From: Kappaphycus alvarezii
Lineage: Eukaryota; Rhodophyta; Florideophyceae; Gigartinales; Solieriaceae
Assembly: GCA_002205965.3 (NCBI GenBank)
Contig: NADL03000515.1
Span: 1-64,000, forward strand
Length of the DNA stretch: 64,000 nt
Direction of reading: 5' to 3'
Part shown: one piece after another, positions 1-45,971 of the stretch
How positions within the stretch are numbered: the stretch's first letter is position 1
Layout of the letters: every line of letters begins with the position of its first letter
Program-made: the position numbers and the translations under genes
The notes under the pieces: model-generated
The model's database searches: none
Seen by the model: only the letters and a program-made list of their open reading frames with translations
What the model was told of the DNA's origin: nothing

Positions 1-414
1 TAAAAGCATCAAGCGCAATATGGCCATGTTTCATGAAACATAGAGATATCTGATGTTACAGAACCGGTCCTTTCTGTAGGAGAGCGGTACTCTATACAAA
101 CTTCTGTGTTCTCCTTCTCCATGAGCTTGCAAAACAAATCTTCTCGTCAATTTTCTTTTAGGAAACAAAATCATGATACGGGGTTTCCCATGAACCCAAA
201 TTCACTTTGCAACTCCATTTCTATTTTGTCTTTGAGCATTTTGGCCCTCCTTTTTCAAAATAGGAATCTTCGACTCGTGATCCGCTTCGTCCTCTAAATT
301 CAGTTCCGATATTTTATCAAGCAGATTTTTAGTTATTGTCTTCATCGCATGCAAATTCAAAGCTGTAACATTGCCTCACATTTTTATTTCATCCAAGGCG
401 TGAAACTTTCCGAA
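1..414. repeat. Left-edge repeat fragment of the cassette family
   Basis: The first 42 bases closely match 43096-43137, where the same block precedes another copy of the acidic-protein cassette. The rest of this stretch is AT-rich and shows no convincing reading frame. It probably belongs to the outer part of the first cassette copy, cut by the window edge. This is based on direct comparison of the two sites; the true outer limit is not visible. Confidence 0.5.
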
Positions 415-424
415 TACGTTGACC

Positions 425-433
425 AATTTAAAG
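425..433 (+). promoter_or_regulatory. TATA-like box of cassette copy 1
   Basis: AATTTAAAG sits about 80 bases before the ATG at 511. TATA-like sequences occupy the same place in the other copies (3971-3980 on the minus strand, about 4677-4686, and 44707-44716), at 75-100 bases from each ATG. Conservation of position across copies supports a core promoter. Confidence 0.5.
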
Positions 434-510
434 TCCGAAATCGACGTCGTTGAGGCAATCCCCTGCCATTAACTACCCCATCGGGTCACCCCTTTTGTTT
501 TGCCCTCAAC

Positions 511-1094
511 ATGATAAACTCCCCGCCCGTCCATCACCATTGCAAAGTTATCCCGAGACCCCCATCCCCTCAACGCTCTGGCCCTGACGGTAAATGGTCC
601 AACCGACTACGATGACTACTGTAGAAGAATGGACTCGGAACGCGTTCGGGAGTAGGTCCGCCGCAATTGCTTCGAGCAGGTAGAAGAGGTAGAGGAGGAG
701 GTAGAGGAAGAGAAGAATGAAGAGGAGGACTGGGTGGAAACGTGGGAGCCACTAGTGTACAACGGTGGGGGAGCTCCTATGGAGAACCAAGAGGGAGACT
801 GAGGGAGTAATCGATATCTCTCACTCTTCTGGCAAAGATGAAGATAAGTGCGAAGAGGAGGACGAGGAGGATGAAGGGGAGAGAGATATGGAAAATGCTG
901 GAATAGTGGGGAGGGGGCCGGAAAGTATGGACCAGGTGTTCCCGACTCTGGAACCGGATGAGGGCATCTTCAGTGGTCTATATATCTCCCAGAAGGCAAT
1001 GGAGAATTCTAAGCCGTTCGCGGATATTTGTGGGGACTGCTTTGGTGGAATGGATATTTCGGGGGAACTGTCTGGCTCTGATCTAGAGGACTAA
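511..1094 (+). pseudogene. Acidic cassette protein, copy 1 (broken)
   Basis: I do not recognise the family. The ATG at 511 lies about 80 bases after a TATA-like box and aligns with the ATG of the right-arm copy. The first half has lost its reading frame: there is an in-frame stop near 653, inside the RE-W region. The second half (765-1094) is open and encodes the same residues as the right arm: a Glu/Asp-rich stretch (KCEEEDEEDEGERD), a VFPTLEPDEG segment, and the C-terminal tail GELSGSDLED. There is no ATG for that half before codon 42, so it is not an independent gene; the two halves lie in different frames, as in the right arm. It is probably a nuclear or regulatory acidic protein, but that is inference from composition only. 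Confidence 0.5.
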
Positions 1095-1509
1095 GATATT
1101 AAGGAATAAATCGAGATATTTATCCTGATAGTATCTGCGCTTAGTCTTTCTCGTTCACACGATCCCGTTTGATGCATTTTATGGCTCTTAGTATGTTTCT
1201 TTGAGACTTTAGGGTTAGCCAAAAAGTCTATATAAGCTGAGTAAATTGCTTCCTCTTGGAGAGGTCAAGAAAGTTGGCAGACAAATTCAAGTCTAGTCCC
1301 GAGTAGTAAGAAGTTGTGAGTCAACTTCAAACCCAACAATCATTTTTCTTACGCTGGTCAGAGAGACTCAGTGGTAGACCCTGCTCCTTCTATACTTGCT
1401 TGTAGCCCTCTCAACTGTCTTCCTTACCAAACCCTTTTTGCTCGTTCAACTATACCATGGAGCACTTTTTCCCCTTGCAACACCCCCTTCTTGGGTTAGT
1501 TTGTTCTGA

Positions 1510-1956
1510 TTATCTCTTCTCCCGACGATTCACCCTTATGACAAACACTAGGATTTCGGTCTCAGAAGAAATGGGGTACTGACTCTTTGTCAAGAAGGTG
1601 ACGCTAATGAGGGAACACGGAGTGCTCTTTTTCTGTGACAAATGCGCTGGTTGAAACCGACTCAACTTGCATGGTATTGCGTATGCACTAAAATGCTGCG
1701 GCTGGCGCAGCTGGAACTCCATACTACAGGGCAGTCGACACTAATGGGGCTTAAGATAAAGAAAAAGAAGTATTGAACGGTGGAACACGGAGGGTTCATT
1801 TACTATAGAAGACAAGCGGGCTGATGCCCAGTAAACTTGTATGGTGTTAGTGAATCGTAAAGTAATATTGCCAGGTGCCGAATCGGCAGCAACAAAACCC
1901 TGATACAGTTTTGGTTCTATTCTTAACTTTCCGTAGTCTTTAACTACGGGTAGCAT
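1510..1956 (-). pseudogene. Repeat-domain cassette protein (module M), copy 1
   Basis: This region reads on the minus strand, facing the acidic gene. Two open segments in one frame (1956-1741 and 1722-1510) are separated by a single stop. Conserved pieces include DYGKL.EP..Y, NTIQV, SSIVNEPSVF and SVTFLTKSQ. The same sequence recurs on the plus strand at 43230-43735. Inside the module a unit of about 190 bases appears to be tandemly duplicated, with each copy ending in a CTCCGTGTTCC-type block. I do not recognise a database family; the alternating hydrophobic pattern would suit beta structure, which is inference. Confidence 0.45.
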
Positions 1957-2861
1957 CTCCTTGTTGTCATTTCACAAATTCTTTACAGTTAGCCCTTGAA
2001 GCATCCAAAGCTGCTATCTCGTCAATTAAGAGGGAAAGGTTTAGATGTTTTATTCTTGGAAGATATATTCGATCTATGCCAATTAAAGTGTCATTAAACA
2101 TGACTCCTAATGTAGGGGCACGCAGATATAATTTTTTTTCATTTTCATTGCAATTTAGTCACTCTGATAGGTAGAATATGGCACCGAAGGAAGAAGGAAC
2201 CCCTAACCACCCGAGGTGAGATTCGCTGCGAGCGACTAAAGTGCCACGGTAGACTTTAACGGGTGGTTGAGAGGAGTGGACGTGAAAGCTGAGGGACTGC
2301 TCTTGTAGAAAACTCTGAAGTGGCAGGATATACCACTTATGCTCCGCCACTGGCGAAAGAAAAGGTTCTTGGGTCTAAAGGTGAGTCTCAACTTCCCAGC
2401 TAATCAGGACTGAATCTGAAGTTGTCTGCCAACTTCCTTTATACTGTAGTTTGTGCGTGAGTTTAGTTTGGTGAGCGTCCCACTAGGGTTTTCTGATCCC
2501 TCAGTACTCCTAAAATTTCACTAGTGCCCCTCCTTACATATAGCAGTGAAATGCCTAAATTTGTAGCACCCGCGCATTACCTTTGCCAGCTCTGTACCGC
2601 TACAGTACAATGCAAAGCATACCTCTAAAAATAATCTAGAATCAAACTTGAATCCCAGTGCCAGCGCAGCATGGCAAAATAAATATAGAAAACTTGCATT
2701 CCAGTGCTAGCGCAGCCAACGCAGCATTCTTAAATAGTATCCAGCCAGCGCAGAACGCCAGTTCATCCAGCGCAGCCAGCGCAGCATTCCCAAGTAGTGT
2801 TCAGAAACATTTCATTTACAACAAACTCCACTACCCTTCCTGAAGATATTTTTAGGAGTAA
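1957..2861. other. Loop of the palindrome with partial cassette copies
   Basis: There is no intact gene here. 2160-2470 is a diverged partial copy of the right arm in the same orientation; compare 2349-2460 with 3036-3140, sharing TTGTCTGCCAACTT. 2640-2830 is rich in degenerate CCAGCGCAGC repeats that encode Ala/Ser on the plus strand, and it resembles the Ala-rich part of module M (around 1690). The loop therefore looks like remains of further cassette units rather than unique sequence. Confidence 0.45.
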
Positions 2862-3297
2862 ATCGTCGGGAGAAGAGATAATCAGAACAAACTAACCCAA
2901 GAAGGGGGTGTTGCAAGGGGAAAAAGTGCTCCCATGGTATAGTTGAACGAGCAAAAAGGGTTTGGTAAGGAAGACAGTTGAGAGGGCTACAAGCAAGTAT
3001 AGAAGGAGCAGGGTCTACCACTGAGTCTCTCTGACCAGCGTAAGAAAAATGATTGTTGGGTTTGAAGTTGACTCACAACTTCTTACTACTCGGGACTAGA
3101 CTTGAATTTGTCTGCCAACTTTCTTGACCTCTCCAAGAGGAAGCAATTTACTCAGCTTATATAGACTTTTTGGCTAACCCTAAAGTCTCAAAGAAACATA
3201 CTAAGAGCCATAAAATGCATCAAACGGGATCGTGTGAACGAGAAAGACTAAGCGCAGATACTATCAGGATAAATATCTCGATTTATTCCTTAATATC

Positions 3298-3895
3298 TTA
3301 GTCCTCTAGATCAGAGCCAGACAGTTCCCCCGAAATATCCATTCCACCAAAGCAGTCCCCACAAATATCCGCGAACGGCTTAGAATTCTCCATTGCCTTC
3401 TGGGAGATATATAGACCACTGAAGATGCCCTCATCCGGTTCCAGAGTCGGGAACACCTGGTCCATACTTTCCGGCCCCCTCCCCACTATTCCAGCATTTT
3501 CCATATCTCTCTCCCCTTCATCCTCCTCGTCCTCCTCTTCGCACTTATCTTCATCTTTGCCAGAAGAGTGAGAGATATCGATTACTCCCTCAGTCTCCCT
3601 CTTGGTTCTCCATAGGAGCTCCCCCACCGTTGTACACTAGTGGCTCCCACGTTTCCACCCAGTCCTCCTCTTCATTCTTCTCTTCCTCTACCTCCTCTTC
3701 TTCCACTTCCTCCTCTGCCTCTTCTGCCTGCTCGAAGCAGTTGCGGCGGACCCATTCCCGAACGCTTTCCCGGTCCAGTCTTCCACAGTAGTCATCGTAA
3801 TCGGTTGGACCACTTGCCATCAGGGCCAGAGCGTTGAGGGGATGGCGGCCTCGGGATGAATTGGCGACTGCGAGGGGCGGGCAGAGGTTGGTCAT
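3298..3895 (-). CDS. Acidic cassette protein, copy 2 (two overlapping frames)
   Basis: The start is the ATG at 3895, about 80 bases downstream of a TATA-like box at 3980-3971. The first frame (3895-3590, 101 residues) runs from an N-terminal part with DYDDYCGRLDRE through a Glu-rich run to WVETWEPLVYNGGG. The second frame (3627-3298) overlaps it by 38 bases, has no ATG of its own near its start, and continues with acidic sequence, VFPTLEPDEG and the tail GSDLED before the stop. The tail matches the other copies: GSDLKKEDCE before 5312 and ESDLKDQNCMD before 45354. The gene is therefore probably one acidic protein of about 200 residues, with a frame change near the overlap that could be a lesion or a recoding site. 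The family is unknown to me. No signal peptide or membrane segment is seen. Confidence 0.5.
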
Positions 3896-3970
3896 TTTAA
3901 GGGCAAAAAAGAGGTGAGCCGATGGGGTAGTTGATGGCGAAGGGTTTTCCTCAAAGATGTCGGCTTTGAA

Positions 3971-3980
3971 CTTTAAATAG
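3971..3980 (-). promoter_or_regulatory. TATA-like box of cassette copy 2
   Basis: CTATTTAAAG on the minus strand lies 76 bases before the ATG at 3895. The leader between box and ATG is also conserved with the left arm (ACTACCCCATCGG block), which supports a shared promoter and 5' leader. Confidence 0.5.
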
Positions 3981-4763
3981 GGCGACGTCTTCGAAAAGTA
4001 TCATGATTGCGGACGTGTCATGACATCTATTAATGACAGCGTGCCTCAAAATAAAAAAATCAACCCATGAATTTGACACAATCATCCAAATTAAAAATAT
4101 CTTGCAAATTCAGAAACTGTATCCGAGTTTGGTCCTCTTCTAGATTTTTTTTCGGGTGAAAATTTAGTGCACATCAGTTTACTAATTTTAGAACTCGATT
4201 TCTCTGTTACCTTGACTCTTATTCTGTGTTTAAAATTTTCGCATCTTCCTTTTCGAAAAACCATTTATAATATGACGCCCTTGAAAAGGAAAGCGACGGA
4301 AAATTCTATTTTGAAATATGATTAAAGTGTCAAGGGAGAAACTGAAGGGATTCTCTTTACGAGCAGAAACTTTTTATCGTAAGTTTCTCTCCACACTTCC
4401 CTGTTTCTTTCAAGCGGTCAAATTCCCAATTCTTTATGCTCGTTTCTTTTTCTCTTTTGTGTGCGACTATCTCCATTTGGCACAGTGATTCTTACAGTCT
4501 TATCTGGGTATTTGATCTTCTTCGACCATAAATATCTTTTTCCATAATCAATATTTCGACCTGTAATTTTCTCCATAATTTATCTTTTGAGAGGTGACTT
4601 TAACTAATTTCTACTGCAAGACTAATTCAAGCCTATTTTTGAGTTAATAGGCCTGCAAATCTGAGCCTGCTGAAGTTATTTAAACCCTTAGGGTGCGGGC
4701 ATAAATTCATCCACGGCCCTTGGACAACAAAAGCCGACAATTTAAGACTATTTAGTATCCATC

Positions 4764-5312
4764 ATGCCCGTGCTTCCCCCTACACACCCCATTTCCAAAT
4801 CCTGCCATACTCGCCCATAACCGTCTCCCCTCCTTCCCCTCGGACGCAGCCGAAGTATAGGACTTACTTCGTCTGAAAAGAGGAAGCACCTGGCGGCGCT
4901 GCGAACGCGTCATCTAGTAATGATTGAGGCACAGGTTGCGGCGGAGGGGAACTTGGAAAAGAAAGACTGTAGGTCAAAGGATTGCTTCGAGGAATAGGTG
5001 GTCCCGGATATGGCCTATGGGATTGAAGGTAAGGACTGCGGGGACGTGTCCGAGGATGAGTAAGAGGGGTTCAAGCATGAGGAAGATTAAGAGAGACAAG
5101 TCAGAGCGGATAGAAATGGGGGGGAAGGAATAAAATGTATGGACCAGAGAGTCCCGACCATGGGTCTGATGGCAGGGGCATTATTTTCTTCGCAGGCGGG
5201 AGTAGGAAATTTTGAGGCGCTCACGGTTTTTTTTGGGGACTAAATGAGTACTTATGACGTCTTGACGGAAGTGGTGGGTTCTGATCTAAAGAAAGAAGAT
5301 TGTGAGTAGTAA
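4764..5312 (+). pseudogene. Acidic cassette protein, copy 3 (broken)
   Basis: The ATG at 4764 follows a TTATTTAAAC box (about 4677-4686). The frame stops after about 15 codons and several further stops follow, so this copy is dead. Toward the end one can still read VPTMGLMAGALFSSQ and the tail EVVGSDLKKEDCE followed by a stop, which lines up with VFPTLEPDEG and GSDLED of copies 1 and 2. Retention of the tail and of the stop position in diverged copies shows the family was once under coding selection. Confidence 0.5.
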
Positions 5313-5686
5313 ATTTTTAGCTTCTCTAAAGTATCTACTTGAAATCAGCTAAGTCTAAATGAAGTATTTTCCTAGGTTTTCTGCCGTTTTTAGTAGTTTT
5401 ATCGAGATTTAAATTTGGAAAAAAGTCTATATAATCTGATCAAATTGCTTCTAACAGGAGAACGAAATTAAAATGGGAGTCAAATTCAAACAAAAGCTTC
5501 GACTAGCTCTTGAGGCCTTTTAGGCTTGAAGCGAGGCGGCAGAAAACTGACCCTTTAGAATAGGTTACAAGAGAAATAACTCCTTTTTCACTAAAAATAC
5601 TCATTCTTGTACGTTAACGTCTACTGTAGCACCATATTCGGCTGCAAAAAATCTCAACTCAGGTAGTTTGATTTTTACTTTTCCGT

Positions 5687-6163
5687 TCACTCCATTTTTA
5701 ACCTTTCAGTATTTTCAGAGTGTTCTATAGATGTAGCTGTTAGCGAGATGGAAACATTTGGAGAAGTTTGTTTAGTGTTAATGGAAAGGCATGCTGCAGC
5801 GACTGTGACGTCAAATTCCGTGCGCTTTATGGTCGTTTTTACCTCAGTACTTTGAGTTACATCGTGATCTAATCTTGTGACCCTCTGAATACCGGGTGGA
5901 TAATATTCAGATAGGTTTGCGATAAGTTCCTGATACCTACTTCCCCGTACATTCCAATAGAATAATGATATATTAATTCCACGAAGTTTGGACCGGCTTC
6001 CATAGACCTCCCATTTTGTAACGAGAATAGAACTAATATTAATAGTTAGTAATCTTCTTCGGCAAAAAAGGCCGTTCAACTTGCGGAAACATAGGCATCT
6101 ATTAATGAAGAACTGGATGATTACGTGGAGGTCAGATAGTCCCGCTTGAACGAGATAATCCAT
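5687..6163 (-). CDS. Repeat-domain cassette protein (module M-like), copy 3
   Basis: This is an open frame of 158 codons facing the acidic gene of copy 3. Its middle part (TIKRTEFDVTVAAACLSIN, about residues 109-127) matches TIKHVSFAFTAAASFLSTN in the minus-strand frame at 46214-45972, and in both copies the match is preceded by a Q-TE motif. The pattern also resembles module M (NTIQV...LSSIVNEPSVF), so both may contain the same domain. No known family is recognised. The N-terminal 70 residues may be outside the true gene because the homology to copy 4 only starts around residue 75. There is no clear signal peptide. Confidence 0.35.
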   Translation of the reverse strand: MDYLVQAGLSDLHVIIQFFINRCLCFRKLNGLFCRRRLLTINISSILVTKWEVYGSRSKLRGINISLFYWNVRGSRYQELIANLSEYYPPGIQRVTRLDHDVTQSTEVKTTIKRTEFDVTVAAACLSINTKQTSPNVSISLTATSIEHSENTERLKME

Positions 6164-6499
6164 TCCCAGCCTCTTTTTCTCCCATATGAATCATTCTATA
6201 GTTGTAGATGAGTGTATTTCGTGATTGCACATCTTCCTGTGCTAGAAGACATTCGTTGGGTCTCTTGTGAGGGAAAAAGACGACATGTATGGATGTCCCT
6301 ACTTGATCTCTTCCCTGAGCTTGAATTTAGCTTGTAATGCAGGTGTCCTTCTTCCATAACGTTGCAAGGGCTCGAGTACTTCTTTTGGGAGGCCGGCTAC
6401 TTCACAGCCTGATGAATAGCTTCTCCATGTATAACAATAACTCTATACGGCCGACTGAAACTGTTTGGAATCGATGCTCTGTACCCTTGTTTCTTTTCA
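6164..6499. other. Unassigned sequence between cassette copy 3 and a Ty3/gypsy fossil
   Basis: Only short, mutually overlapping frames are present and none matches anything I recognise. It may include the 3' terminus of the degraded gypsy element to the right, but no LTR could be identified by eye. Confidence 0.4.
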
Positions 6500-9400
6500 T
6501 TGTTAACGCGCGGAGTGAGTTCCAACCTTCTGTGGCAAATAGTTCGAAATTTACACCCTCCGCAATGGTTTTATTTGTTAATAGATCTCTTTTTAGGATT
6601 CTCGGAGCCCTTTCGTACAAAAGCTCAGACTGAAAGCGTCCAAGTTTTCATCTCCTTCGGCGATAACCGTATAGCATCTATGATAGATCGTTTTCCCATT
6701 TGATTTCATTCTCCGATGTGGTTTTCGATATTTATGGTTTGATGGATCCGGTAATTCTTTCTTTCTTCCCAATTCGGCGTAGTAGAACAAGCGACAACTG
6801 CTTCAAACTGAATCCCTTTCTCCCCAAAAAGCGAAGAAGTGGCCTTGCAGTGAAACAAAGGGCGTTTCCCGAGATGATCCATTCAGAAAGACCAAACGAT
6901 TCGATTATTTCTTTTTCGAGGAACTTCAGTCCACCTCAGCATTAGCCTACTCAACTGAAACCGACAATGGCCATCAAGTGAGATGCTTCACCCCTGTAGG
7001 GAGATATTTGCTTCTAGAAGACGTTTCCTTGAATGGGCTTGCGAATTCGATTGAGAAGCTCTCAAAGAGACCGGAAACTGGAACGCCTAGAGTATTCTTG
7101 TACTTTCGGACCAGAGTGAAATGTTTTGACATTTTCACAGATTTTCGCGAAATTATAGATGTCCTTATGGATACTGGGCCACCAGAAAATTTCTGTATTG
7201 AATTGCTTGGATGTTTCAAGATCCCAATGCCCTAACGCATCATGAAAAGTCCTCAAGATATTCATTCTTTCTTTCAACGGGTCTACTAATCGGAGGCTGG
7301 CTTTGGTTTATTATAAGAGTTTCACACCCCACGATGTAAAACCTTTTGGTTCCTGCTTAACCAAATTCTGCGCTCAAGATCAACCTTTAACTTCCATAAA
7401 GCGTTTTCAATAGTCCCTGAATATTAGCTTCCTAATTGTTACCTTGTGCTACCTGCATGCCGTTAACTCCAAAAATTTTCTCGGAAGCCTTCTCACTTGG
7501 AATCATTGTATATCTTAAAAGTGATAGGTCACTCTCAAGATGATTATTTTCGTCTGGGTCTATGCACAATTTAAAGCCAATATTCTGCAAAAATTTCAAG
7601 CAATCGAGCCAAACGGTTATGTACATCTATTTTTTTGGGATGCCGTCTAAATTTTCGGATGATCAGTTATCAAAACACATTTTTCGAGAGATAAACATAG
7701 ACAAAAAACTTTTTCAACGCGCAGAAAAAAGATAGTGCTTTATTCTTGCAGACTGAGTATCTCTTTTCTGTGTTATTTAGGGCGCGAATTGCCAATTGAA
7801 CGGAATACACCCCCCCTATTTCATTCTTCTGGGACAAAGCCGCACCCAAAGACAGTTCTGAGGCATCTGTTTTAACAATAAATGACCTCTTGAGATCCGG
7901 TTACAGTAGGATTGGAGGAACACCTAGCTTATCTTTAAGTTACCCGAATGCATCCCGCATTTATTTGCTCCAGGCAAACTTCCTGTTCTTCGTAGTACCT
8001 GCATGTAAAAGAGTTTTTTTCTTGGCTAAATATTTGAGAAATCTCGGATATATGATACCGGACCTAGGAAGCTTCGAACTTTTGTCTTTGAAGCGACCCT
8101 TGATGCCAACTTTATTGCTTTCATTTTTTTGACAGAGTACCTGGATAGATTTTTTCGCAAAGAAGCATGTTCTCAACTTATTTTTCAGGCTGTCTGTAGA
8201 TATCCTACCGAAAACAGCCTTAATAGCTTATATTTTTTCATCAAAGATCTTCCAAATATTATCACATCATCGATATATACCCTCGCAAATGAAATTACAT
8301 TCAAAACCTCATCCATCATGTTTTAGAACGTATCTGATGCATGCCTGACACTGAATGGCATCTCCTCGAATCTAAATGTGCCCACCTTGCTTGTAAATTT
8401 TTTATCTTTGCGTTTTTCATCAAACGGAATTTACCAATACCCGGTGCACAGGTCAATTGGTATAAAATATTTCACGTCCTTTAAGTCCTCGATAATTTCT
8501 TCAACATTTGGAATCGGAAATCTATCGGGTATCATTTTTTAGTTCAATTGAAGGTAGGTGACGTTGAAACAAAGCTTGATATCCTTTTAGGGGGCGACTA
8601 CAATGACCATGGAGACGAGTTTGGTCGAATAATGCTATTCAAGGGTATATTTGTAACATTCTCCGAAATAAACTGATTTAAGTTGGGTGATTTATGTTTA
8701 GATATATCCTAAATTGGCTGAAAATTGGTGCGCTGGAAGGAATGGGTGACTGGTACACTCGCTTGTCTTAAATCGAAAACGCTCCATGCAATAACTTCGG
8801 AAGATGTTAATATATCGGATATTTTCTTTGACGCAGAAGCAGAAAGGTGCCGCCTTTTTTCTTCAATTTCTGCGATCTAACGCTCTTCTTCTTTTTGATC
8901 CTTTCTCTTCCTATTTTGAAGGAAATCTTCCGGTGTGCTCATATTTTCAGATATGACATTCGACAAACTATTATTCTCTTTGCACAAATTTTCGCCTTTC
9001 AAACTCGTAATACTGCCCTTTGATTCTATATTATCGCAAAATGAAACACACTCGGGGCCAAAAATTCTTTAGAATTCCAGTCTTCATCTTTTTCAAATCC
9101 AGAATTATAATCATGCCATGCCATGTTTGGTGGTACTCTTCAAGCATATGATTTTCCATTTCCAAAAGTTTTAGTTGGTTCTTATCCTTCGATATCGTAG
9201 CTAGAATTTAAATATTTGGTGTCCTTTTTTCTCAGATCTTCTGCATGTATGCTTTTGTAGAAGTCCAGTGGCATCTTTACGATTCTACCGTCAATATAAA
9301 CTGAATCACTTGGGTTGCCGATGTCAGTGCATGTCCCCAGTTCTATCTTGGTCGGAAAACCAATGATTTCATGGAAAGGTAGCTCAGGCATGACAAGAAA

Positions 9401-9800
9401 ATCAACATCAATTGTCGAATCACAGTAGAGCACTGAATCATTGTGAACAATGCCCATGAACTTTGAAACGATTCCAACCCCAGCAGTTATTCTTCGCGTA
9501 GATATAATAAGTTCGAGACCGAGATCTGTCACTAAAATTTCTGAAATGAGATTTTAAAAAGCGCCCAAATCGAAACAAGCCTGGTTTTTCATTCCCAATA
9601 CTTTGACTTCTACCAGCATAAGCTCTTGTTTCTGTCGAGGCCGAGTGAAAAAACAATTTCTTTCCCTTATCGGACTTATTAGACTATATAATTTTTTGAG
9701 TTCTTTACTCCGATCCTCTGCGTCGCCCCTTACGAGCTGACCAACAGAGAGAAAGTCAGCTTCTTGTATCTTTTGGTGCTCCATTCTTACCTAAGATATG
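6500..9800 (-). mobile_element. Ty3/gypsy retrotransposon fossil, internal region
   Basis: Parts in the expected gypsy order can be read on the minus strand. A retropepsin-like region lies at about 9790-9180, a reverse transcriptase at about 8650-8100 (with the YIDDVI catalytic box at 8280-8263 and EEMPF before it), and the integrase zinc-binding region at 7277-7062 (HDALGHWDL, then WWPSIHKDI, then C..C-like spacing). The integrase core remains down to about 6600. LTRs were not found. The element is very broken, with many breaks in every part, and base composition has drifted toward AT. It is clearly old and cannot be active. Confidence 0.75.
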
Positions 9801-18560: not shown

Positions 18561-21500
18561 ACTTGGCAACTGACCTCGCTACGGACAATGACCGGTATGA
18601 CAGATCCCCTTCATCACACCATGAACCCGACTTCGACTTCCATCCCGGAGATGGTGAGGACTCTGACGATGAAAGTGCCAACTCCGTTCACTTCGCTGAC
18701 CATGACGATGAACGAGATATCAACTTCGTCTCTGACTTCACATCCTCGCTGCATGAGCAACTATGCGACAATGCAATTCGTCACTCACTCCGTGCCGAAC
18801 CCAACCCAATTGTCTATGACCATGCTGCTGAAGAGATCAACACATCTGATCTTATATCAATGTGGTCCAAGGCACGCCGTCGGAAGTTGATGAAGCGAGC
18901 AGGGAAATGTCGCAAGCGAGAAATCATTGTCGAGGATCCTAGAGGTGTACTCAAACCGATCAATCATGCCATCTACAGCGAAGACGACTTCATAGGAATA
19001 TGCACGGATATTGGAGCTTCTACTGCTTGCTCTGGCCTGGATCAGTACAAGGCCTACTGCAAGGTGAAAAGTTCTCCAGTTCAACTGAGACCCTCATCAC
19101 ACATTCTAAAGTTCGGTGGTAAGCGACACAGGTCTCTGGGAATTTCAACCATCCGCGTACCTATTTCAGACAGTTCTTTCTTCCAGTACGAGTGCGACGT
19201 TGTTAAGGTTGATGTACCAATGCTACTGGGACTCCGTCAAATGGATGCGAATGGTGTTTACGTGAATAACATCACCCGGCAACTCATTCACCACTACGAT
19301 GGATGGACCCTCCCCCTAGCTCACATCAACGGTTATCTATTCATTCAGTTAGACCACGAAGTGATGTTCACGGAAGCAGAGCTGCGAAAGCTTCACTGGC
19401 AATTCTTTCACCCCAGTGTCGCCCGTCTATATGGACTACTGAAGCGAGCAAGACCTGAAGAGGTAGGACCTGAAACGAAGAAGGCTATACAGGAGATCAC
19501 AGACGCTTGCAAGACATGTACCGAGCTGAAGCGGCGACCGTTACCCTTTGTTGTTTCTATTCCTGAGGAAGGCCTTGTATTCAATCGAAGCGTAATCATT
19601 GATCTCTACTACCTGGACGGACGCCCTACCCTTTCGATCATCGACAAGGATACTAGCTACTTGGCCTCTAACTTCCTCCCCAACATCACTAAGGAAGCTG
19701 TATGGTGTTCCTTCCTTCTCACATGGGTTAACACTTATGCTGGATGGCCTGATGCAGTGTCACGAGACTCTGGATCTCAACTTCGCTCCCGCAACTTTCA
19801 GCAGTATCTTGAAGGCTCAGCTGTCGCGTTCAACGCAACTGGTGTAGAGTCTCATCACTCCTTGCGCAAAGGCGAACAAGTTCATGACTCTATCCGACGC
19901 ACCTACAAGAAGGTTCGGGCAACCTTTCCGACCGTCTCCCAAGAACATTCACTAAGCATTGCCGTCAAAGCATACAATGATACGGCTAATGTTAATGGAC
20001 TCTTCCCATCGTTGTTGGTCTTCGGGATCATGCCACGTATCCACATTGGTAACGAGGAGCTACCTGATGAAGAGACCCGTTTCAAAGCAATGACCGAAGC
20101 ACGGAATGAGATGGAGACCATTATGAATCAGCGTCGAATCGACAAGGCACTTAAGAAACGGACACCTTCCGCTGCAAACCGCACCTACCAACCCGGCGAT
20201 GAAGTAATGGTCTATCGTGAACGTTACCAAGAGCAGAATGTGAACAAGTGGGTCGGACCTTTCAAGGTTATCAAGCAAGTGGAAAAGATTTTGACCGTGA
20301 AGGACAAGGAACGCGAAGTGGAGTACAACATCGATCAAGTCAAGCCTTACATTTTTCCTGCTGTACAGTTCGCGAATGTTCTTAGCGATGCCTTGTCAAA
20401 CCTGCACAGAGACACGAAAGATATCTTCATCACTGAAATTCTTCCCATCAATGATCCTCGTGTTAAGGACCCACGCTTCGCAGAAGCCAAACTCAAAGAG
20501 CTTCAGGGACTCATTAGTCGCGGCATGTTCAAGGTTTGTCTCAAGAAGGACATTCCAAAAGATGCAAACATTCTGGGTACTCGTTTCGCTCTCACGATCA
20601 AGAATCTAGAAACTGATGAACCTCTCTTCAAGGCTCGTCTGATTTCACAAGGTCACAAGGATAAGGACAAGGACTTTATCATCAACTCCGTCACTACGTT
20701 GCACAAGCATAATGTTCGTCTTATGGCCTGTATTGCTGCTACCTTTGGTTTTGATATGTTTTCTCAAGATGTCACTCAAGCATACACCCAGGCAACGTAC
20801 TAACTACTTCGGGACGTCTTCATACGCCCTGTTAAGGAATTCCGTGACATGATGAAACTTCCTGCAGGTGCCCTATTGAAACTGCTGGTACCTCTCTACG
20901 GAACCCCAGATGCTGGAGACTATTGGGAACTGACCTTCAAAAACCATAACACGGAGGACTTACAGATGAAGCCCACCGTAATGGACAGTAGTCTCTTTGT
21001 CCACCATACTGAGAAGGATGGGAAGAAATTTCTGAACGGACTCTCTGGTACTGTTGTTGATGATGCATTACAATTCGGAACAGAGGATTTCAAGAAGCTT
21101 ACCGAATTGACTGGTCAGAAATTTGATTCAAAGCCTCGTGAATATGGAAGTACAAACTTCACTGGAATCCGTATCAAAAAAACCGGAAAAGCGTTTCACA
21201 TGTCAAAAATTGACTATATCAACAAACATAAGCCTCTTTCGAAAGACTGTTCGATGACCGACTTCCGTTCATCCAGAGGTGGTATCTCATGGATCCTACA
21301 CACCAGACCGGACATCGCGTTCAACATCGCTCAACTTTCACAAGTCACGGAAGATGAGCTAGATGATGAAGCAGTTCGCGCGGTGAACAAGGTCGTCACC
21401 CATCTACAGAGTACCAAACATCGCACCATGAAGTTTGTACCCCTGTACATCGAATCATTGCACGTCGCTGTGTACACTGATAGCTCCTTCGCGAAAATTT

Positions 21501-22000
21501 TGGACCTCACATCACAATTAGGCGTTGTAGTGCTGCTTGCGGATTGCAAAAAAAGCTGCAACCTTCTTCATTACAACTCATACAAAGCACGTCGTGTTAC
21601 GAGATCTGTCCTTGGAGCAGAGCTTTACTCCTTCGCAGATGGATTTGATTTTGCTTTCTCAATGCAACACGATCTCAACTTCATTCTCAACCGAGATGTT
21701 GCTATCAAGATGTACACTGACAGCAAGAGTCTTTTCGACATACTTGTTACCGCAGGTTAGACTTCCGAAAAGCGTTTGATGATTGACTTAAGTTCTCTTC
21801 GAGATGCATATGACAGAGGTGAAATATCGGATGTTGCTTGGATCAGATCCGAATTTAACCCCGCGGACGCTATGACCAAGCTAATCAAGTCGGACGTTCT
21901 GGACAAAATCATGAACCATAACGTTATTGACCACCCCGTTGAACAGTGGGTCGTGAAAAAAACTGCAACGTCCATTGGTAGTTCAACTGCTTAGTCGCCT
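18561..22000 (+). other. Copia A pol region
   Basis: Recognisable parts in order are as follows. The protease has TDIGASTACSG near 19008. The integrase zinc-binding region has HWQFFHPSVARLYGLL and CKTCTELK. The integrase catalytic core has IDLYYLDGRPTLSIID, then DSGSQL. It is followed by a chromo/SH3-like tail with KWVGPFKVI. Reverse transcriptase starts at about 20520 (GLISRGMFKVCLKKDIP...FSQDVTQAYTQA), with VVDDAL near 21055. RNase H is at about 21470-21960 (AVYTDSSFA, WIRSEFNPADAMTK). The order is diagnostic of Ty1/copia. It is broken at about one or two points, so no active polyprotein is expected. Confidence 0.85.
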
Positions 22001-22024
22001 AAATTCGCGACAAAGTAGAGGGAC

Positions 22025-22272
22025 TGTGTAAGCCAGTAGTTAGTCGACTCATTTAGGGCACACGTGTAGGACGATTGTGTTGGTCGGCTCGTCGGTTTCC
22101 GCCGCTTGGCCCCGACGAACTTTTACCCATTACTTATACAGGGGCACATCTGCCCCCAGAGTAAAGAGGTAACCGAAGGAACATCAACTGCATTTTATCA
22201 AGACATCGAACCACCGTTCTGTTGTGAGTTGCAGTTGCCCCTTCGTGTCCCAACCAGTCGTTGTCTACAACA
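22025..22272 (+). repeat. 3' LTR of copia A
   Basis: It is 248 bases, TGTGTAAGCC to CTACAACA, followed by the target duplication GTTGC and then host flank. It is nearly identical to 27054-27301 and about 96% identical to the 5' LTR. Confidence 0.93.
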
Positions 22273-22689
22273 GTTGCTTTAAAAGGGATTAAGCGTATTT
22301 GATGTAAGCTTACACACTAGGAACTCAGCAGCGCGCCCAGATCACCTCAAATCCCGCGAGTGGTATGGTTTTGCTTCAACCGATAGGAATATGGAACTCT
22401 GAGGGTATGCTCTGCTCTGCCGTCCTACTTTTCAATCATTAAAACACACCAATTTTTCCCCTTTGCTGTGTTATAGTAAATGAACCAGCGTGTTCCCCCT
22501 ATGCTCTGTCGGGGCCATCATGATACGAAGACATGCTGCGTCACAGAATGCTTCGAATGCGGCATGTCTATTGACAGAACTGATTGTTACTTTTTAGTAG
22601 CTGTTCCATAGCACCTTCACTCTTGGCTAGGCTCCATTGCCATTCTAATAGATTGTTGAGGAAGAAGAGGAGAGACTATTGGAATATTT

Positions 22690-22985
22690 GAAGGCACGGG
22701 AGGAATACAGTACAGCGAATACTACAGACTGGACCTTCACCCCATGGTTGCTGATGTCTATGGTTGCATTGGACCCGGGTTTGATCAAGCTTTGCAACAA
22801 GTCGCCCACTTTCTCGCCAGCAAGCCTGGTACCTCTGTTGCCGCCGAGAAAGAATCGCTCGCGTTAGATTCGTATGCCTGGTTGTCCAATACGTTGCTAC
22901 GTCCGTTAATCGGCGGCGTCTTGACCAGACCACCGAATTGGCCCCTGCTGTGTAGTCCCAGGCCCTGCGCTGTATGGCGCTAGCG
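22690..22985 (+). pseudogene. RLE-type LINE, C-terminal fragment (copy in unit 1)
   Basis: The frame reads KAREEYSTANTTDWTFTP then MVADVYGCIGPG and ends with a stop at about 22983. It lines up with FHPMAFDIYGSAGSG (31-kb LINE) and LSPVGIDIYGALGDN (40-kb LINE), each preceded by K..Y spacing. I infer that these are the last 100 or so residues of a non-LTR reverse transcriptase protein ending in a restriction-like endonuclease. The upstream part is missing, as is usual for 5'-truncated LINE copies. Confidence 0.5.
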
Positions 22986-23090
22986 GTCTCCTGAGTATTG
23001 ATCATTAAAGGTGATGCTTTCGTACAGTATTAAGAGAAATATTGTAGTTACAGTATTAAGCTGGCCCGATCTTACCTCAAAAAAGCTGCA

Positions 23091-23432
23091 ATGGAACCCT
23101 GCGGGACAGCCGAATTGGCAGAACTCGACAAGCTGAAGACCTTCGACTGCTCATTGAGAGCTGCGTTTAACCTGACCTCGGACGCTACTTTTCCAAAGGT
23201 CGGTTTTCACTTTGTTCCGCTCGCTTTCGACTCTTTCGCCGCGCCCTCTAAGTCATCCTCCGGAGTAATTGAGACGCATGCGAAATTGATATCGCGACGA
23301 CTGTTCTGTACACCAGCGGCGGCCCTTGACAACCTGCGGCAACGAATCTCATCGATAAAATGGTCTACCTTTGCAACATCGATTCTACCGCGTACTCTCA
23401 AGCTAGGCAGCGACGAACTTCAACTATCTTAG
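23091..23432 (+). CDS. Unrecognised open frame in duplicated flank
   Basis: It has 113 codons from an ATG, with no family recognised. The translation has no clear signal peptide, domain or repeat. It is preserved unchanged in the second duplication unit (28120-28461), but the units are too young for that to mean selection. It may be part of a LINE 3' region. Low confidence as a gene. Confidence 0.15.
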   Translation: MEPCGTAELAELDKLKTFDCSLRAAFNLTSDATFPKVGFHFVPLAFDSFAAPSKSSSGVIETHAKLISRRLFCTPAAALDNLRQRISSIKWSTFATSILPRTLKLGSDELQLS

Positions 23433-23634
23433 CAATTTCGGCCAGGCTTGTACGCCTCTCATAAAACATGAAGTAAAGAGGGGAAATTTGGGGTGTTTTT
23501 AATCCATGAAAAATATGGTCAGCTGTTCCCTGAGGGATGTCGTGATGTGGGTAAAGGCTTAAAATGTAATGGATTGGCATGAAGCCGTCAAACAGGCACG
23601 CCGCATTGGATAGCTGCCGCAGCGGCATGACGCT

Positions 23635-26600
23635 CCCCTTCATCACACCATGAACCCGACTTCGACTTCCACCCCGGAGATGGTGAGGACTCTGACGATG
23701 AAAGTGCCAACTCCGTTCACTTCGCTGACCATGACGATGAACGAGATATCAACTTCGTCTCTGCCTTCACATCCTCGCTGCATGAGCAACTATGCGACAA
23801 TGCAATTCGTCACTCACTCCGTGCCGAACCCAACCCAATTGTCTATGACCATGCTGCTGAAGAGATCAACACATCTGATCTTATATCAATGTGGTCCAAG
23901 GCACGCCGTCGGAAGTTGATGAAGCGAGCAGGGAAATGTCGCAAGCGAGAAATCATTGTCGAGGATCCTAGAGGTGTACTCAAACCGATCAATCATGCCA
24001 TCTACAGCGAAGACGACTTCATAGGAATATGCACGGATATTGGAGCTTCTACTGCTTGCTCTGGCCTGGATCAGTACAAGGCCTACTGCAAGGTGAAAAG
24101 TTCTCCAGTTCAACTGAGACCCTCATCACACATTCTAAAGTTCGGTGGTAAGCGACACAGGTCTCTGGGAATTTCAACCATCCGCGTACCTATTTCAGAC
24201 AGTGCTTTCTTCCAGTACGAGTGCGACGTTGTTAAGGTTGATGTACCAATGCTACTGGGACTCCGTCAAATGGATGCGAATGGTGTTTACGTGAATAACA
24301 TCACCCGGCAACTCATTCACCACTACGATGGATGGACCCTCCCCCTAGCTCACATCAACGGTTATCTATTCATTCAGTTAGACCACGAAGTGATGTTCAC
24401 GGAAGCAGAGCTGCGAAAGCTTCACTGGCAATTCTTTCACCCCAGTGTCGCCCGTCTATATGGACTACTGAAGCGAGCAAGACCTGAAGAGGTAGGACCT
24501 GAAACGAAGAAGGCTATACAGGAGATCACAGACGCTTGCAAGACATGTACCGAGCTGAAGCGGCGACCGTTACCCTTTGTTGTTTCTATTCCTGAGGAAG
24601 GCCTTGTATTCAATCGAAGCGTAATCATTGATCTCTACTACCTGGACGGACGCCCTACCCTTTCGATCATCGACAAGGATACTAGCTACTTGGCCTCTAA
24701 CTTCCTCCCCAACATCACTACGGAAGCTGTATGGAGTTCCTTCCTTCTCACATGGGTTAACACTTATGCTGGATGGCCTGATGCAGTGTCACGAGACTCT
24801 GGATCTCAACTTCGCTCCCGCAACTTTCAGCAGTATCTTGAAGGCTCAGCTGTCGCGTTCAACGCAACTGGTGTAGAGTCTCATCACTCCTTGCGCAAAG
24901 GCGAACAAGTTCATGACTCTATCCGACGCACCTACAAGAAGGTTCGGGCAACCTTTCCGACCGTCTCCCAAGAACATTCACTAAGCATTGCCGTCAAAGC
25001 ATACAATGATACGGCTAATGTTAATGGACTCTTCCCATCGTTGTTGGTCTTCGGGATCATGCCACGTATCCACATTGGTAACGAGGAGCTACCTGATGAA
25101 GAGACCCGTTTCAAAGCAATGACCGAAGCACGGAATGAGATGGAGACCATTATGAATCAGCGTCGAATCGACAAGGCACTTAAGAAACGGACACCTTCCG
25201 CTGCAAACCGCACCTACCAACCCGGCGATGAAGTAATGTTCTATCGTGAACGTTACCAAGAGCAGAATGTGAACAAGTGGGTCGGACCTTTCAAGGTTAT
25301 CAAGCAAGTGAAAAAGATTTTGACCGTGAAGGACAAGGAACGCGAAGTGGAGTACAACATCGATCAAGTCAAGCCTTACATTTTTCCTGCTGTACAGTTC
25401 GCGAATGTTCTTAGCGATGCCTTGTCAAACCTGCACAGAGACACGAAAGATATCTTCATCACTGAAATTCTTCCCATCAATGATCCTCGTGTTAAGGACC
25501 CACGCTTCGCAGAAGCCAAACTCAAAGAGCTTCAGGGACTCATTAGTCGCGGCATGTTCAAGGTTTGTCTCAAGAAGGACATTCCAAAAGATGCAAACAT
25601 TCTGGGTACTCGTTTCGCTCTCACGATCAAGAATCTAGAAACTGATGAACCTCTCTTCAAGGCTCGTCTGATTTCACAAGGTCACAAGGATAAGGACAAG
25701 GACTTTATCATCAACTCCGTCACTACGTTGCACAAGCATAATGTTCGTCTTATGGCCTGTATTGCTGCTACCTTTGGTTTTGATATGTTTTCTCAAGATG
25801 TCACTCAAGCATACACCCAGGCAACGTACTAACTACTTCGGGACGTCTTCATACGCCCTGTTAAGGAATTCCGTGACATGATGAAACTTCCTGCAGGTGC
25901 CCTATTGAAACTGCTGGTACCTCTCTACGGAACCCCAGATGCTGGAGACTATTGGGAACTGACCTTCAAAAACCATAACACGGAGGACTTACAGATGAAG
26001 CCCACCGTAATGGACAGTAGTCTCTTTGTCCACCATACTGAGAAGGATGGGAAGAAATTTCTGAACGGACTCTCTGGTACTGTTGTTGATGATGCATTAC
26101 AATTCGGAACAGAGGATTTCAAGAAGCTTACCGAATTGACTGGTCAGAAATTTGATTCAAAGCCTCGTGAATATGGAAGTACAAACTTCACTGGAATCCG
26201 TATCAAAAAAACCGGAAAAGCGTTTCACATGTCAAAAATTGACTATATCAACAAACATAAGCCTCTTTCGAAAGACTGTTCGATGACCGACTTCCGTTCA
26301 TCCAGAGGTGGTATCTCATGGATCCTACACACCAGACCGGACATCGCGTTCAACATCGCTCAACTTTCACAAGTCACGGAAGATGAGCTAGATGATGAAG
26401 CAGTTCGCGCGGTGAACAAGGTCGTCACCCATCTACAGAGTACCAAACATCGCACCATGAAGTTTGTACCCCTGTACATCGAATCATTGCACGTCGCTGT
26501 GTACACTGATAGCTCCTTCGCGAAAATTTTGGACCTCACATCACAATTAGGCGTTGTAGTGCTGCTTGCGGATTGCAAAAAAAGCTGCAACCTTCTTCAT

Positions 26601-27306: not shown

Positions 27307-27718
27307 TTTAAAAGGGATTAAGCGTATTTGATGTAAGCTTACACACTAGGAACTCAGCAGCGCGCCCAGATCACCTCAAATCCCGCGAGTGGTATGGTTT
27401 TGCTTCAACCGATAGGAATATGGAACTCTGAGGGTATGCTCTGCTCTGCCGTCCTACTTTTCAATCATTAAAACACACCAATTTTTCCCCTTTGCTGTGT
27501 TATAGTAAATGAACCAGCGTGTTCCCCCTATGCTCTGTCGGGGCCATCATGATACGAAGACATGCTGCGTCACAGAATGCTTCGAATGCGGCATGTCTAT
27601 TGACAGAACTGATTGTTACTTTTTAGTAGCTGTTCCATAGCACCTTCACTCTTGGCTAGGCTCCATTGGCATTCTAATAGATTGTTGAGGAAGAAGAGGA
27701 GAGACTATTGGAATATTT

Positions 27719-28014: not shown

Positions 28015-28119
28015 GTCTCCTGAGTATTGATCATTAAAGGTGATGCTTTCGTACAGTATTAAGAGAAATATTGTAGTTACAGTATTAAGCTGGCCCGATC
28101 TTACCTCAAAAAAGCTGCA

Positions 28120-43735: not shown

Positions 43736-43954
43736 GTAAAAATCGATTTCTCTGTTTACTCGACGTTTTTATGTGTAGAAATTTTGCCTCTTTTCAAAAA
43801 AACTTTACGGTGTGAACCACTTCGAAAAGGAAAAGGACAGAAAAATCTACATGGAAATGAGCTTCACGTGTTGAGGGAGAAACTGAAGGTATTCTCTATA
43901 GGAGCAGAAATTCATTTTCATAAATTTCTCTACATTTTCTTTTTTCTATCACGA

Positions 43955-44459
43955 GTGTCTATAGGGCCGTTGTCCTCATGTGAGGACTACTTTTTGCACT
44001 TCTTTTTCAATACAAGTTTTGTTATCTCAGCGCGTATCTTGTCCCTCCGCATTAGTTCATGAGAGTAGATGGCCGATCAAACCAAACTTTTCAAGATTGT
44101 TGACCATGGTTAAGGCTGCAGCAATTTTCCCTCACCAACTTCCGCTCTTTGCAAGAAATTGTGAAAATGACTTAACTTTGGAAGGAAATATAATTCGAAT
44201 TTTCGTGGAGGGGTTCAGAAACGAGGGCGCATGTACAGTAAGAATTACTATACTGTGACGTGATATAAAAAAACCTTTTTGCAGTAAAAATTTCGAGCCT
44301 CCAAAAAATTTACATTTCCAAAAGAAGAAGAATGACGCTTTATTGTTTGAAGACAAGTCCGCACTACACAGGACTACATTTCCAAAATGTAACAGAAACT
44401 GTCCTCATATGAGGACAAAGTGTGCCTCATATGAGGAAAGTGCTATGACGGATAGACAC
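43955..44459. mobile_element. MITE copy 2, carrying a 51-bp retroposed insert
   Basis: It aligns with 37536-37976, with the same GTGTCTAT/ATAGACAC ends and CTCATATGAG palindromes (the left one changed by one base). The right flank is TA and the left flank reads GA, so one target base has changed. At 44324-44374 a 51-base piece interrupts it, flanked by the 13-base duplication TACATTTCCAAAA (44311-44323, 44375-44387). Confidence 0.85.
44324..44374 (-). mobile_element. 51-bp LINE/SINE 3' tail insertion
   Basis: On the minus strand it ends CAATAAAGCGTCATTCTTCTTC-like, with a polyadenylation-type AATAAA and a (TTC)n tail. The 13-base target duplication and the empty site in MITE copy 1 show target-primed retroposition of a severely 5'-truncated element. 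The (TTC)n tail matches the tail style of the LINE at 31.0 kb. Confidence 0.75.
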
Positions 44460-44706
44460 TAGACGACATTCCCGTTTCTTTATACTCCTCTCTTTTCCCT
44501 TTTCGCGTACAACGATCACCCTCATTGACAGTCATTCTTTTAGTCTTATCGGGTTACTTGACTTCGACCCTAAATATCTTCTTCCGTAATCGAGATTTCT
44601 ACTCGTACTTTTCTCCATTAATTATCCCCTTCAATGCGATTTTCCACTAATTTCCACTGTAAGAGTCGATTTTGCCTGTTTGACTCAGGAAGTCCGCCTA
44701 TCTTAG

Positions 44707-44716
44707 CATATAAAAG
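44707..44716 (+). promoter_or_regulatory. TATA box of cassette copy 4
   Basis: CATATAAAAG lies 90 bases before the ATG at 44806, which sits in a strong Kozak context (gccaccATGc). It occupies the position seen in copies 1-3. Confidence 0.6.
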
Positions 44717-44805
44717 CTATTGAAACCCTTCAGATGTGGACTAAAATTTATTTACAGCACCTTAGCAACAACAACTCGACAATTTAAACACCTTTGGTAG
44801 CCACC

Positions 44806-45354
44806 ATGCATATAATTCCCCCTTTTCGCCCCATTACAAATCGGGCCATCCTCGCGTCATCACCGTCTCCCCTCTATTCCCTTCGACTCAACTGGTGTAG
44901 AGGACTCCCTCCGCCGTATAACATTAAAGAGCCTGACGAAGCTTGTAGCTCCCTACCTAGTAGAGATCGAGGCACAGGACGAAGCAAGGAGGGACTTGGA
45001 TAAAAGGAGATGGTAGGTCAGAAGAGTACTTTGAGGAGTGGTTGACCCCATAACTAGTCTACGAGATTTAAGAAGAGGACGGCGAGGAAGGGTCCGAGGA
45101 TGGTGAAGAGAAGCCTGAGGATGAGGAATGGTAAGCCGGAACGGATAAAAGCGGAGGGTAAGGAACAAAATGTAACGATTAAGTGGTCCCGACCATAGGT
45201 CCAGTGGGAGGGACGTTGGATAAGCTGAATTTCTCGCAGGGGGAAGTAGACAACCAAGAACCACTCATGGTTATTTTTGGGACTAAACCGGGACTTGTGA
45301 TGTCTTGACTGAAGTAATTGAATCTGACCTGAAGGATCAAAATTGCATGGATTA
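44806..45354 (+). pseudogene. Acidic cassette protein, copy 4 (broken)
   Basis: From the ATG at 44806 the frame runs about 65 codons (MHIIPPFRPITNRAILASSP) before a stop. Later pieces VVPTIGPVGGTLDKLNFSQG and ESDLKDQNCMD-stop match the family tail in copies 1-3. Several stops and frame changes make it dead. Promoter and start context are the best preserved of any copy. Confidence 0.5.
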
Positions 45355-45971
45355 GATTTGTTCAGTTTCTGTCAATGCATTCTCCATCAAGGTAGCTACG
45401 TCTACATGAAATCTTTTCTGCATTTTTTGGCATTTATACCAGTTTTATCGAAATTTTGGTTTGCACAAAAGCCTATATAAGATAAAAAGATTGCTTTATT
45501 GTGAATAGGTACAGTATATTGGAAGTCAACTTCGAGAACACCTTCTACAAGCTCTCTAGACTCTAAACGTAGTGGCTGAGCCTTACTTTATAGAATTAGC
45601 TACTAGATCAGTAACTCTTCTTTTACTACCAATCTTCAGACTTGTAAGCTAACTTCTACGGTACCAGTTTAGTCGCCTGCAACAAACCTCATCTCAGGTA
45701 GTTGAAGGTTTCCTTTTCCGTTGACACCATTTTTACCCTGTTACTGTTTTCAGAGTATTATCTAGAACCGTTTATCTACGTCCGGAGTCAGGAGTATTGT
45801 TATTAGGAACCATTTTGAGGCGGATAAGGAACATGAACGGATACGCGATATGGAGAAAAGGGGTAAAAAATAGGTAAAGATTATTGGCCCTGAAACTATA
45901 GATGGGCTTTATTCGGCTTTAATATTAGCAAGGACTGAAAAGTGCCTGAATTACCAGAAGTGAATCGCAAC

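What the first reader, a model, noticed from the sequence alone, without database searches (positions are those of the whole stretch)
415..6163. Unrecognised convergent two-gene cassette, repeated at least four times
An acidic protein gene (TATA box 75-95 bases before a conserved ATG; conserved tail ending in SDL plus a few residues) always faces a second gene with a repeated domain (TIK...TAAA.LS.N or NTIQV...VNEPSVF). Copies lie at 0.4-2.0, 2.6-4.0, 4.1-6.2 and 43.1-46.2 kb. No reverse transcriptase, transposase or known family accompanies them. Conservation of promoter position, start, tail and stop in diverged copies points to a once functional mobile or virus-derived unit that I cannot name.
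Basis: partly seen in the sequence, partly recalled or inferred. Interest (0 to 1): 0.72.

Follow-up and report, generated by a model that had tools for sequence, protein, structure and literature searches.

The report
Acidic protein gene inside retrotransposon LTRs
The repeated "cassettes" are mostly lone end-repeats (solo LTRs) of a Ty3/Gypsy retrotransposon, and unusually these end-repeats carry what looks like their own small gene for an acidic protein, while the supposed partner gene shows no sign of being a gene.

Summary
The acidic ORFs are real repeats, but not a two-gene cassette. They lie inside long terminal repeats (LTRs). Window 51-1541(+) and ~2850-4176(-) are LTRs of one high-copy family (A); 4328-5708(+) and ~43868-45742(+) belong to an older sister family (D). 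LTR evidence: TG..CA ends, 5-bp target duplications (at least 4/5 in 16 of 24 family-A copies with both ends found), and 928 genomic LTR ends followed by TGG (93 of 100 listed read TATCA-TT-TGG). One full element (L059) has identical LTRs and protease, RT, RNase H and integrase in Ty3/Gypsy order. In ORF-bearing LTRs a 190-207-codon acidic ORF sits upstream of the LTR TATA box, with a TATTTAAA-like box 82-86 bp before the ATG in family A. Intact ORFs of two diverged LTR families share 49-51% of residues, more than neutral drift gave. This resembles MMTV sag/naf, a gene in U3, but in a retrotransposon of a probable red alga. The convergent "second gene" shows no coding signal: it is partly decayed 3' sequence of an opposed Gypsy copy, partly duplicated flank. 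9 of 12 PBS-linked LTRs read lack the ORF, so it is dispensable in cis. Function is unknown; a nuclear, perhaps transcription-activating, accessory protein is my guess.

The parts
51..1541 (+). LTR of family A, class 1 (TGATGTTACAG...CACCCTTATGA), solo, no convincing TSD
   Evidence: Ends shared with L011, L015, L018, L022, L024, L025, several of which have TSDs
425..432 (+). TATA-like box AATTTAAA of the U3 ORF, 86 bp before the ATG
511..1094 (+). Acidic ORF remnant (frameshifts and stops) in U3 of copy 1
1229..1235 (+). TATATAA, putative promoter of the retrotransposon RNA (U3/R boundary just downstream, inferred)
   Evidence: Sequence read; also in L028, L059 and L082
1543..2030 (-). NTIQV 'second gene': non-coding segment also present at 43241-43728(+)
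2850..4176 (-). LTR of family A, class 2 (TGATGTGCAC start), inverted relative to copy 1; exact 3' end uncertain
3298..3895 (-). Acidic ORF remnant of copy 2 (frameshift between two open halves); TATTTAAA 84 bp upstream
4328..5708 (+). LTR of older sister family D (TGTCAAGGGAG...ACCTTTCA), solo
4677..4684 (+). TATTTAAA, 87 bp before the ORF ATG of copy 3
4764..5309 (+). Acidic ORF remnant of copy 3 (family D)
   Evidence: sequence read
5687..6163 (-). 'Second gene' of copy 3: 5898-6163 is the decayed 3' ORF of a Gypsy element; 5735-5885 is a segment shared with other copies, without coding signal
5898..9744 (-). Decayed Ty3/Gypsy internal region (protease to integrase and 3' ORF), 75% identical to L059 over 3917 aligned positions
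43868..45742 (+). LTR of family D (copy 4), ends approximate, interrupted by another insertion at about 43949-44462

Best explanation
The units are LTRs, mostly solo, of a Ty3/Gypsy retrotransposon lineage in a eukaryote that is probably a red alga. The ORF-bearing LTRs have a long U3 that contains what looks like a complete small gene: TATTTAAA, about 85 bp, ATG, a 190-207-codon ORF, then the LTR's own TATA box, R and U5. Because it lies in U3, the gene should be present in both LTRs of an element and survive in solo LTRs. It encodes a protein with a basic N-terminal part and a long acidic middle and tail. Shown: LTR nature, Gypsy internal region, ORF inside U3, intact copies, and more protein conservation between LTR families than neutral drift gives. 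Inferred: transcription from the inner TATA. Guessed (about 0.25): the protein is a nuclear accessory factor, for instance a transcription activator or chromatin binder acting on the element's LTRs in trans, which would let ORF-less LTR derivatives coexist with ORF-bearing ones.
For: Ends and 5-bp TSDs (at least 4/5 in 16 of 24 copies with both ends; family D: 4 of 13 loci by eye, one exact). L011's two flanks lie side by side without an LTR in L016. LTR end followed by TT-TGG in 93 of 100 listed of 928 pattern hits, backwards control 0. Full element L059 with 719/719 identical LTRs and Pfam RVP, RVT_1, RT_RNaseH and rve in that order, in separate frames. Of 12 LTR-PBS loci read, 3 carry the ORF region (L064 and L071 broken, L069 intact) and all 12 share the L059 internal start at 93.7-100% over 119-149 bases. 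On C51, ORF matches 7481 bp apart with a PBS junction between fit an element with the ORF in both LTRs. 24 listed matches without stops. L028, L073, L074 v L069: 49-51% residues identical, pN/pS 0.42-0.48, third positions differ most. 1000 neutral simulations from L028: 1 without a stop, 0.1% quantile of pN/pS 0.544, highest residue identity 0.41. A DNA-guided alignment gives 24/17/38. TATA spacing 28 of 28.
Against: Within family A the 28 copies do not clearly reject neutrality: singletons fall 57/50/51 over codon positions and shared variants 24/27/35, pooled pN/pS about 0.57 (neutral median 0.72 at low divergence). Leaving out acidic columns, the comparisons with L069 give pN/pS 0.53, 0.57 and 0.63 and 43-47% identity, nearer the neutral range. 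That alignment was guided by protein, and the simulations were not realigned, which favours constraint. In the DNA-guided alignment the ORF part differs more (79 of 269) than the downstream LTR part (81 of 445). 9 of 12 PBS-linked LTRs, and L059, lack the ORF region. L082 has two compensating frame changes. Only 8 of 25 family-D loci show a TATA-like box 85-100 bp upstream. No transcript or protein evidence.
Confidence: 0.83

Rival explanations
1. The ORF is a fortuitous open frame in a G+A-rich U3 sequence that is conserved for regulatory, not coding, reasons.
For: Purine-rich GAG/GAA runs give acidic residues in one frame; family-A copies alone are close to neutral; without acidic columns pN/pS rises to 0.53-0.63; most PBS-linked LTRs read lack it.
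Against: Diverged intact ORFs keep 49-51% of residues where the neutral maximum was 41%, with third-position excess and no stops; much of the conservation is in the non-acidic N and C termini.
Confidence: 0.15
2. The acidic gene is a host gene captured once into the LTR and carried as a passenger.
For: ORF-bearing and ORF-less LTRs share the same ends and internal start, so the ORF block behaves as a module.
Against: Present in A, A-prime and the older D LTR families, so if captured it was early; no Pfam family reached its cut-off. A host parent gene was not sought apart from the repeat copies.
Confidence: 0.2
3. One reading: a convergent two-gene mobile cassette distinct from known retroelements.
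For: The same neighbour recurs beside several family-D copies.
Against: The neighbour segment has no coding signal; similarity between family-A loci ends at the LTR ends, and flank matches between them are at other offsets; LTR-PBS-internal linkage.
Confidence: 0.02

Closest known systems
Mouse mammary tumour virus sag/naf (ORF in the U3 of the LTR, expressed from a second U3 promoter; one passage of PMC9412291 seen)
   Same: ORF inside U3, upstream of the main LTR promoter, with a promoter of its own (here only a motif)
   Different: No superantigen family among the Pfam hits; Ty3/Gypsy retrotransposon, not a betaretrovirus; acidic protein
Grande gene23 and Retand TRP28 antisense ORFs (plant Gypsy; passages and a reference entry of PMC11963269 seen)
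   Same: Accessory gene of a Gypsy element; the title of the Grande paper reports a nuclear protein from its own promoter
   Different: Those lie between pol and the 3' LTR; the Retand ones are antisense. Here the gene is sense and inside the LTR
Retrosat2 ORF0 (passages of PMC3485330) and bdelloid rotifer ORF3 (passages of PMC5408684)
   Same: Extra ORFs of LTR retrotransposons
   Different: ORF0 is reported upstream of gag-pol; ORF3 comes after ORF1 and ORF2. Neither was described as lying in the LTR in the passages seen

Membership tests
LTR of an LTR retrotransposon | TG..CA ends | tested here: met
   (individual old copies deviate)
LTR of an LTR retrotransposon | Short target-site duplication (5 bp) | tested here: met
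   At least 4/5 bases in 16 of 24 copies with both ends found; 28 examined, L072 dropped before as identical to L028; one of the 24, L064, is followed by the PBS
LTR of an LTR retrotransposon | Primer-binding site directly after the 5' LTR | tested here: met
   928 hits, 93 of 100 listed TATCA-TT-TGG, control 0. The primer tRNA was not identified: 39 hits against 31 in the control
LTR of an LTR retrotransposon | Two (near-)identical copies flanking an internal coding region | tested here: met
   L059, ORF-less variant. For the ORF-bearing variant only a pair of ORF matches 7481 bp apart
Ty3/Gypsy | Order protease, RT, RNase H, integrase; RVT_1-type RT | tested here: met
   on separate reading frames of L059
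MMTV-like U3-encoded accessory gene (works like) | ORF wholly in U3 | tested here: met
   ORF 313-903 of a 1350-bp LTR, main TATA at 1035; the U3/R boundary itself is inferred from the TATA box
MMTV-like U3-encoded accessory gene (works like) | Separate promoter for the ORF | tested here: inconclusive
   Positioned TATA motif only; no transcripts
MMTV superantigen family (membership) | Homology to Sag | tested here: not met
   No such family among Pfam hits up to E 0.5; that Pfam holds a Sag model is recalled, not checked
Gypsy accessory genes of the Grande/Retand kind | Gene located between pol and 3' LTR | tested here: not met
   ORF is inside the LTR

The most novel reading that the evidence does not exclude
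A non-retroviral LTR retrotransposon lineage carries an autonomous gene in its U3, so that each intact solo LTR is a self-contained transcription unit for an acidic nuclear trans-acting factor. The element thereby seeds the genome with many helper genes that support ORF-less LTR derivatives in trans.
Probability: 0.25. Interest if true: 0.75.

Novelty: new variant of a known kind. Interest (0 to 1): 0.5.

Why it matters
LTRs are normally regulatory DNA. In my phrase searches of open-access papers the only case of a gene inside the LTR that I recognised was MMTV sag/naf; I did not see one for a Ty3/Gypsy retrotransposon. If the ORF is expressed, solo LTRs, usually dismissed as dead, would be active genes spread through the genome. 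The coexistence of ORF-bearing and ORF-less LTRs on one internal backbone would make trans-complementation by LTR genes directly testable.

Tried and rejected
Host or effector gene family: rejected once LTR ends, TSDs and PBS appeared. Fungal host: my first guess, dropped after a best actin match in one open frame and three phycobilisome-family (PF00502) matches on contigs of this assembly, which point to a red alga but do not name it. The 336-Mb size recalls Kappaphycus alvarezii from memory only; paper searches for its assembly listed no such paper. Primer tRNA: pattern search gave 39 hits against 31 in the control. Known families for the acidic protein: Pfam (on window pieces, on intact ORFs: only hits below cut-off), PHROGs (one E 0.005 hit to an unknown family) and PDB (one E 0.11 hit in an acidic stretch) gave nothing usable. 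Relation of the acidic protein to the element's own internal frames: no match better than E 1. Papers whose listing suggested an LTR gene (PMC12037069, PMC4016481, PMC1560396; passages) and PMC10787394 (passages) did not describe one. No structure prediction was run, because the tool's stated list of admitted sequences does not name loci of the genome search.
Full report
What was checked. The window is the first 64 kb of contig C511 of a 336-Mb eukaryotic assembly. Self-comparison confirms the repeats: 401-1533 against 4003-2858 (94%, inverted), 4422-5731 against 44468-45766 (68%), and a separate segment 1543-2030 against 43728-43241 (78%).

They are LTRs. Searching the genome with 401-1533 returned 41 matches at 76-100% identity, itself included; only 40 of 6368 first-look candidates were scored. 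Among 20 oriented loci similarity ends at common points. Some loci share other repeats in their flanks, at other offsets, and the two window copies overlap in their flanks. L011's two flanks lie side by side without an LTR in the flank of L016, an empty-site-like pair. The left end is TGTTGTTACAG (class 1, about 1.5 kb) or TGATGTGCGC (class 2, about 1.35 kb); the right end is ACCCCTATCA. Of 28 copies (L072 had been dropped as identical to L028) both ends could be placed in 24; 16 of these 24 have a 5-bp duplication matching at 4 or 5 positions, and 8 do not, one of which (L064) is followed by the PBS. The older family D, read at 13 loci, ends TGTCA...T(T/G)TCA in the better copies and has such duplications at 4 loci by eye, one exact. 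The family-A right end followed within 0-6 bases by TGG occurs 928 times, backwards control 0; of 100 places listed, 93 read TATCATTTGG. That is the signature of a primer-binding site after a 2-base spacer, although the primer tRNA was not identified.

The element. L059 has two LTRs of 719 bp, identical to each other, around a 6-kb internal part. Separate reading frames match aspartyl protease (RVP), RVT_1, RNase H and integrase core (rve) families in Ty3/Gypsy order; its pol is not one open frame. After integrase it carries two tandem copies of a roughly 130-residue domain (32% identical, E 2e-20) without Pfam match. Window 9744-5898(-) is a decayed copy of this internal region, 75% identical over 3917 aligned positions, spanning the part that holds protease to integrase in L059. 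So an RT remnant lies about 2 kb from one of the units.

The gene in the LTR. In L028 the 1350-bp LTR has TATTTAAA at about 227, an intact 196-codon ORF at 313-903, a second TATA (GTCTATATAAGC) at 1035 and its end at 1350. A TATA-like box is 82-86 bp before the ATG in 28 of 28 family-A copies (19 exact TATTTAAA, the rest within one mismatch), 97 and 113 bp before it in L069 and L071, and 85-100 bp before it in 8 of 25 family-D loci; the other D loci lack a recognisable box or ATG there. Family-A copies share ancestry, so their agreement is not independent. Of 12 loci read at LTR-PBS junctions, L064 has a family-A ORF-bearing LTR (ORF broken), and L069 (ORF intact) and L071 (ORF broken) a third type, A-prime. 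The other nine, like L059, lack the ORF block but share the ends. All 12 continue into the same internal start at 93.7-100% identity over 119-149 bases. On contig C51 the A-prime ORF occurs twice, 7481 bp apart, with a PBS junction between, as expected for one element with the ORF in both LTRs; that element was not read whole.

Is it coding? Of the matches listed, 24 cover at least 186 of 196 residues with no stop. The listing is ranked by similarity to an intact copy, so it is enriched for intact ones. L028, L073 and L074 compared with L069 share 49-51% of residues with pN/pS 0.42-0.48; L028 and L069 differ 70/62/107 over codon positions. Without acidic columns the values are 43-47% identity and pN/pS 0.53, 0.57, 0.63. 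Of 1000 neutral simulations of the L028 ORF at this divergence one had no stop, the 0.1% quantile of pN/pS was 0.544 (median 0.78), the 99.9% quantile of the third-position share was 0.399 (observed 0.448), and the highest residue identity was 0.41. The simulations had no realignment step, so the comparison is generous to constraint. A DNA-guided alignment of the last third of the ORF gives 24/17/38 over 269 sites; the downstream LTR differs less (81 of 445). Within family A the signal is weak, as expected of copies that have mostly drifted since insertion. Family-D ORF remnants match the L028 protein at 27-44% in the better matches, and window copy 3 matches the L069 ORF at 29% over 200 residues. 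The protein has a basic N-terminal 55 residues (pI 8.9) and an acidic remainder (pI about 4).

The second gene. The NTIQV segment differs 35/39/31 over codon positions between its two window copies, and every frame of both stretches has at least 5 stops. The TIK segment (151 bp, so low power) shows no third-position excess in five comparisons, with stops in the aligned frame in L002, L003 and L004 but not in L039 and L040. Window 5898-6163 is the 3' ORF of the decayed Gypsy copy, and that stretch makes up 29 of the 40 matches, at 79-80%. The units at 4, 44 and 121 kb of C511, on C719 and on C557 share flanks outside the LTR, which I read as segmental duplication.

Function. Nothing here shows what the protein does. 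Position, promoter motif, basic plus acidic layout and the presence of ORF-less LTRs on the same backbone suggest a trans-acting nuclear accessory protein. I put about 0.25 on a transcriptional or chromatin role. The closest published architecture seen is MMTV, whose U3 contains the Sag/Naf ORF with a U3 promoter (one passage of PMC9412291). Plant Gypsy accessory genes lie elsewhere in the element (passages of PMC11963269 and PMC3485330). Five phrase searches (open-access papers only) listed no Ty3/Gypsy LTR gene that I recognised; I looked into passages of eight papers and not into the rest.

Host. The best actin match is a single open frame, and three PF00502 matches lie on contigs of this assembly; a red alga is likely but unproven.

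Change at checking.

Noticed in passing
L059:6348-7266: After integrase this Gypsy encodes two tandem copies of a ~130-residue domain (32% identical, E 2e-20) with no Pfam or PHROG match; a possible second accessory gene in the env position.
   Followed up: partly
678-1460 and 2932-3714: The inverted pair of LTRs is 99% complementary over 783 bp but 83% (ungapped) in an overlapping outer 203-bp arm, a pattern suggesting gene conversion between the two arms.
   Followed up: no
18593-28663: A 5-kb tandem duplication at 99.8% identity holding Copia-type frames; RVT_2 match weak and below cut-off.
   Followed up: no
33135-34952(-): Copia-type frame with RVT_2 and Tudor-like matches, all below cut-offs, in one open frame.
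   Followed up: no
42291-42902(+): Cysteine-rich, possibly secreted protein of up to 203 residues without Pfam match; a close copy lies beside the related unit on C719 (L040).
   Followed up: no
L060-L071: ORF-less LTRs are 9 of the 12 PBS-linked LTRs read, while ORF-bearing A-prime LTRs share the same near-identical internal start; ORF loss in cis apparently without loss of mobility.
   Followed up: partly
2165-2830: Another high-copy repeat (38 of 40 scored places, at 74-83%) with a short stretch similar to the presumed R region of the family-A LTR; perhaps the LTR of a further family.
   Followed up: no
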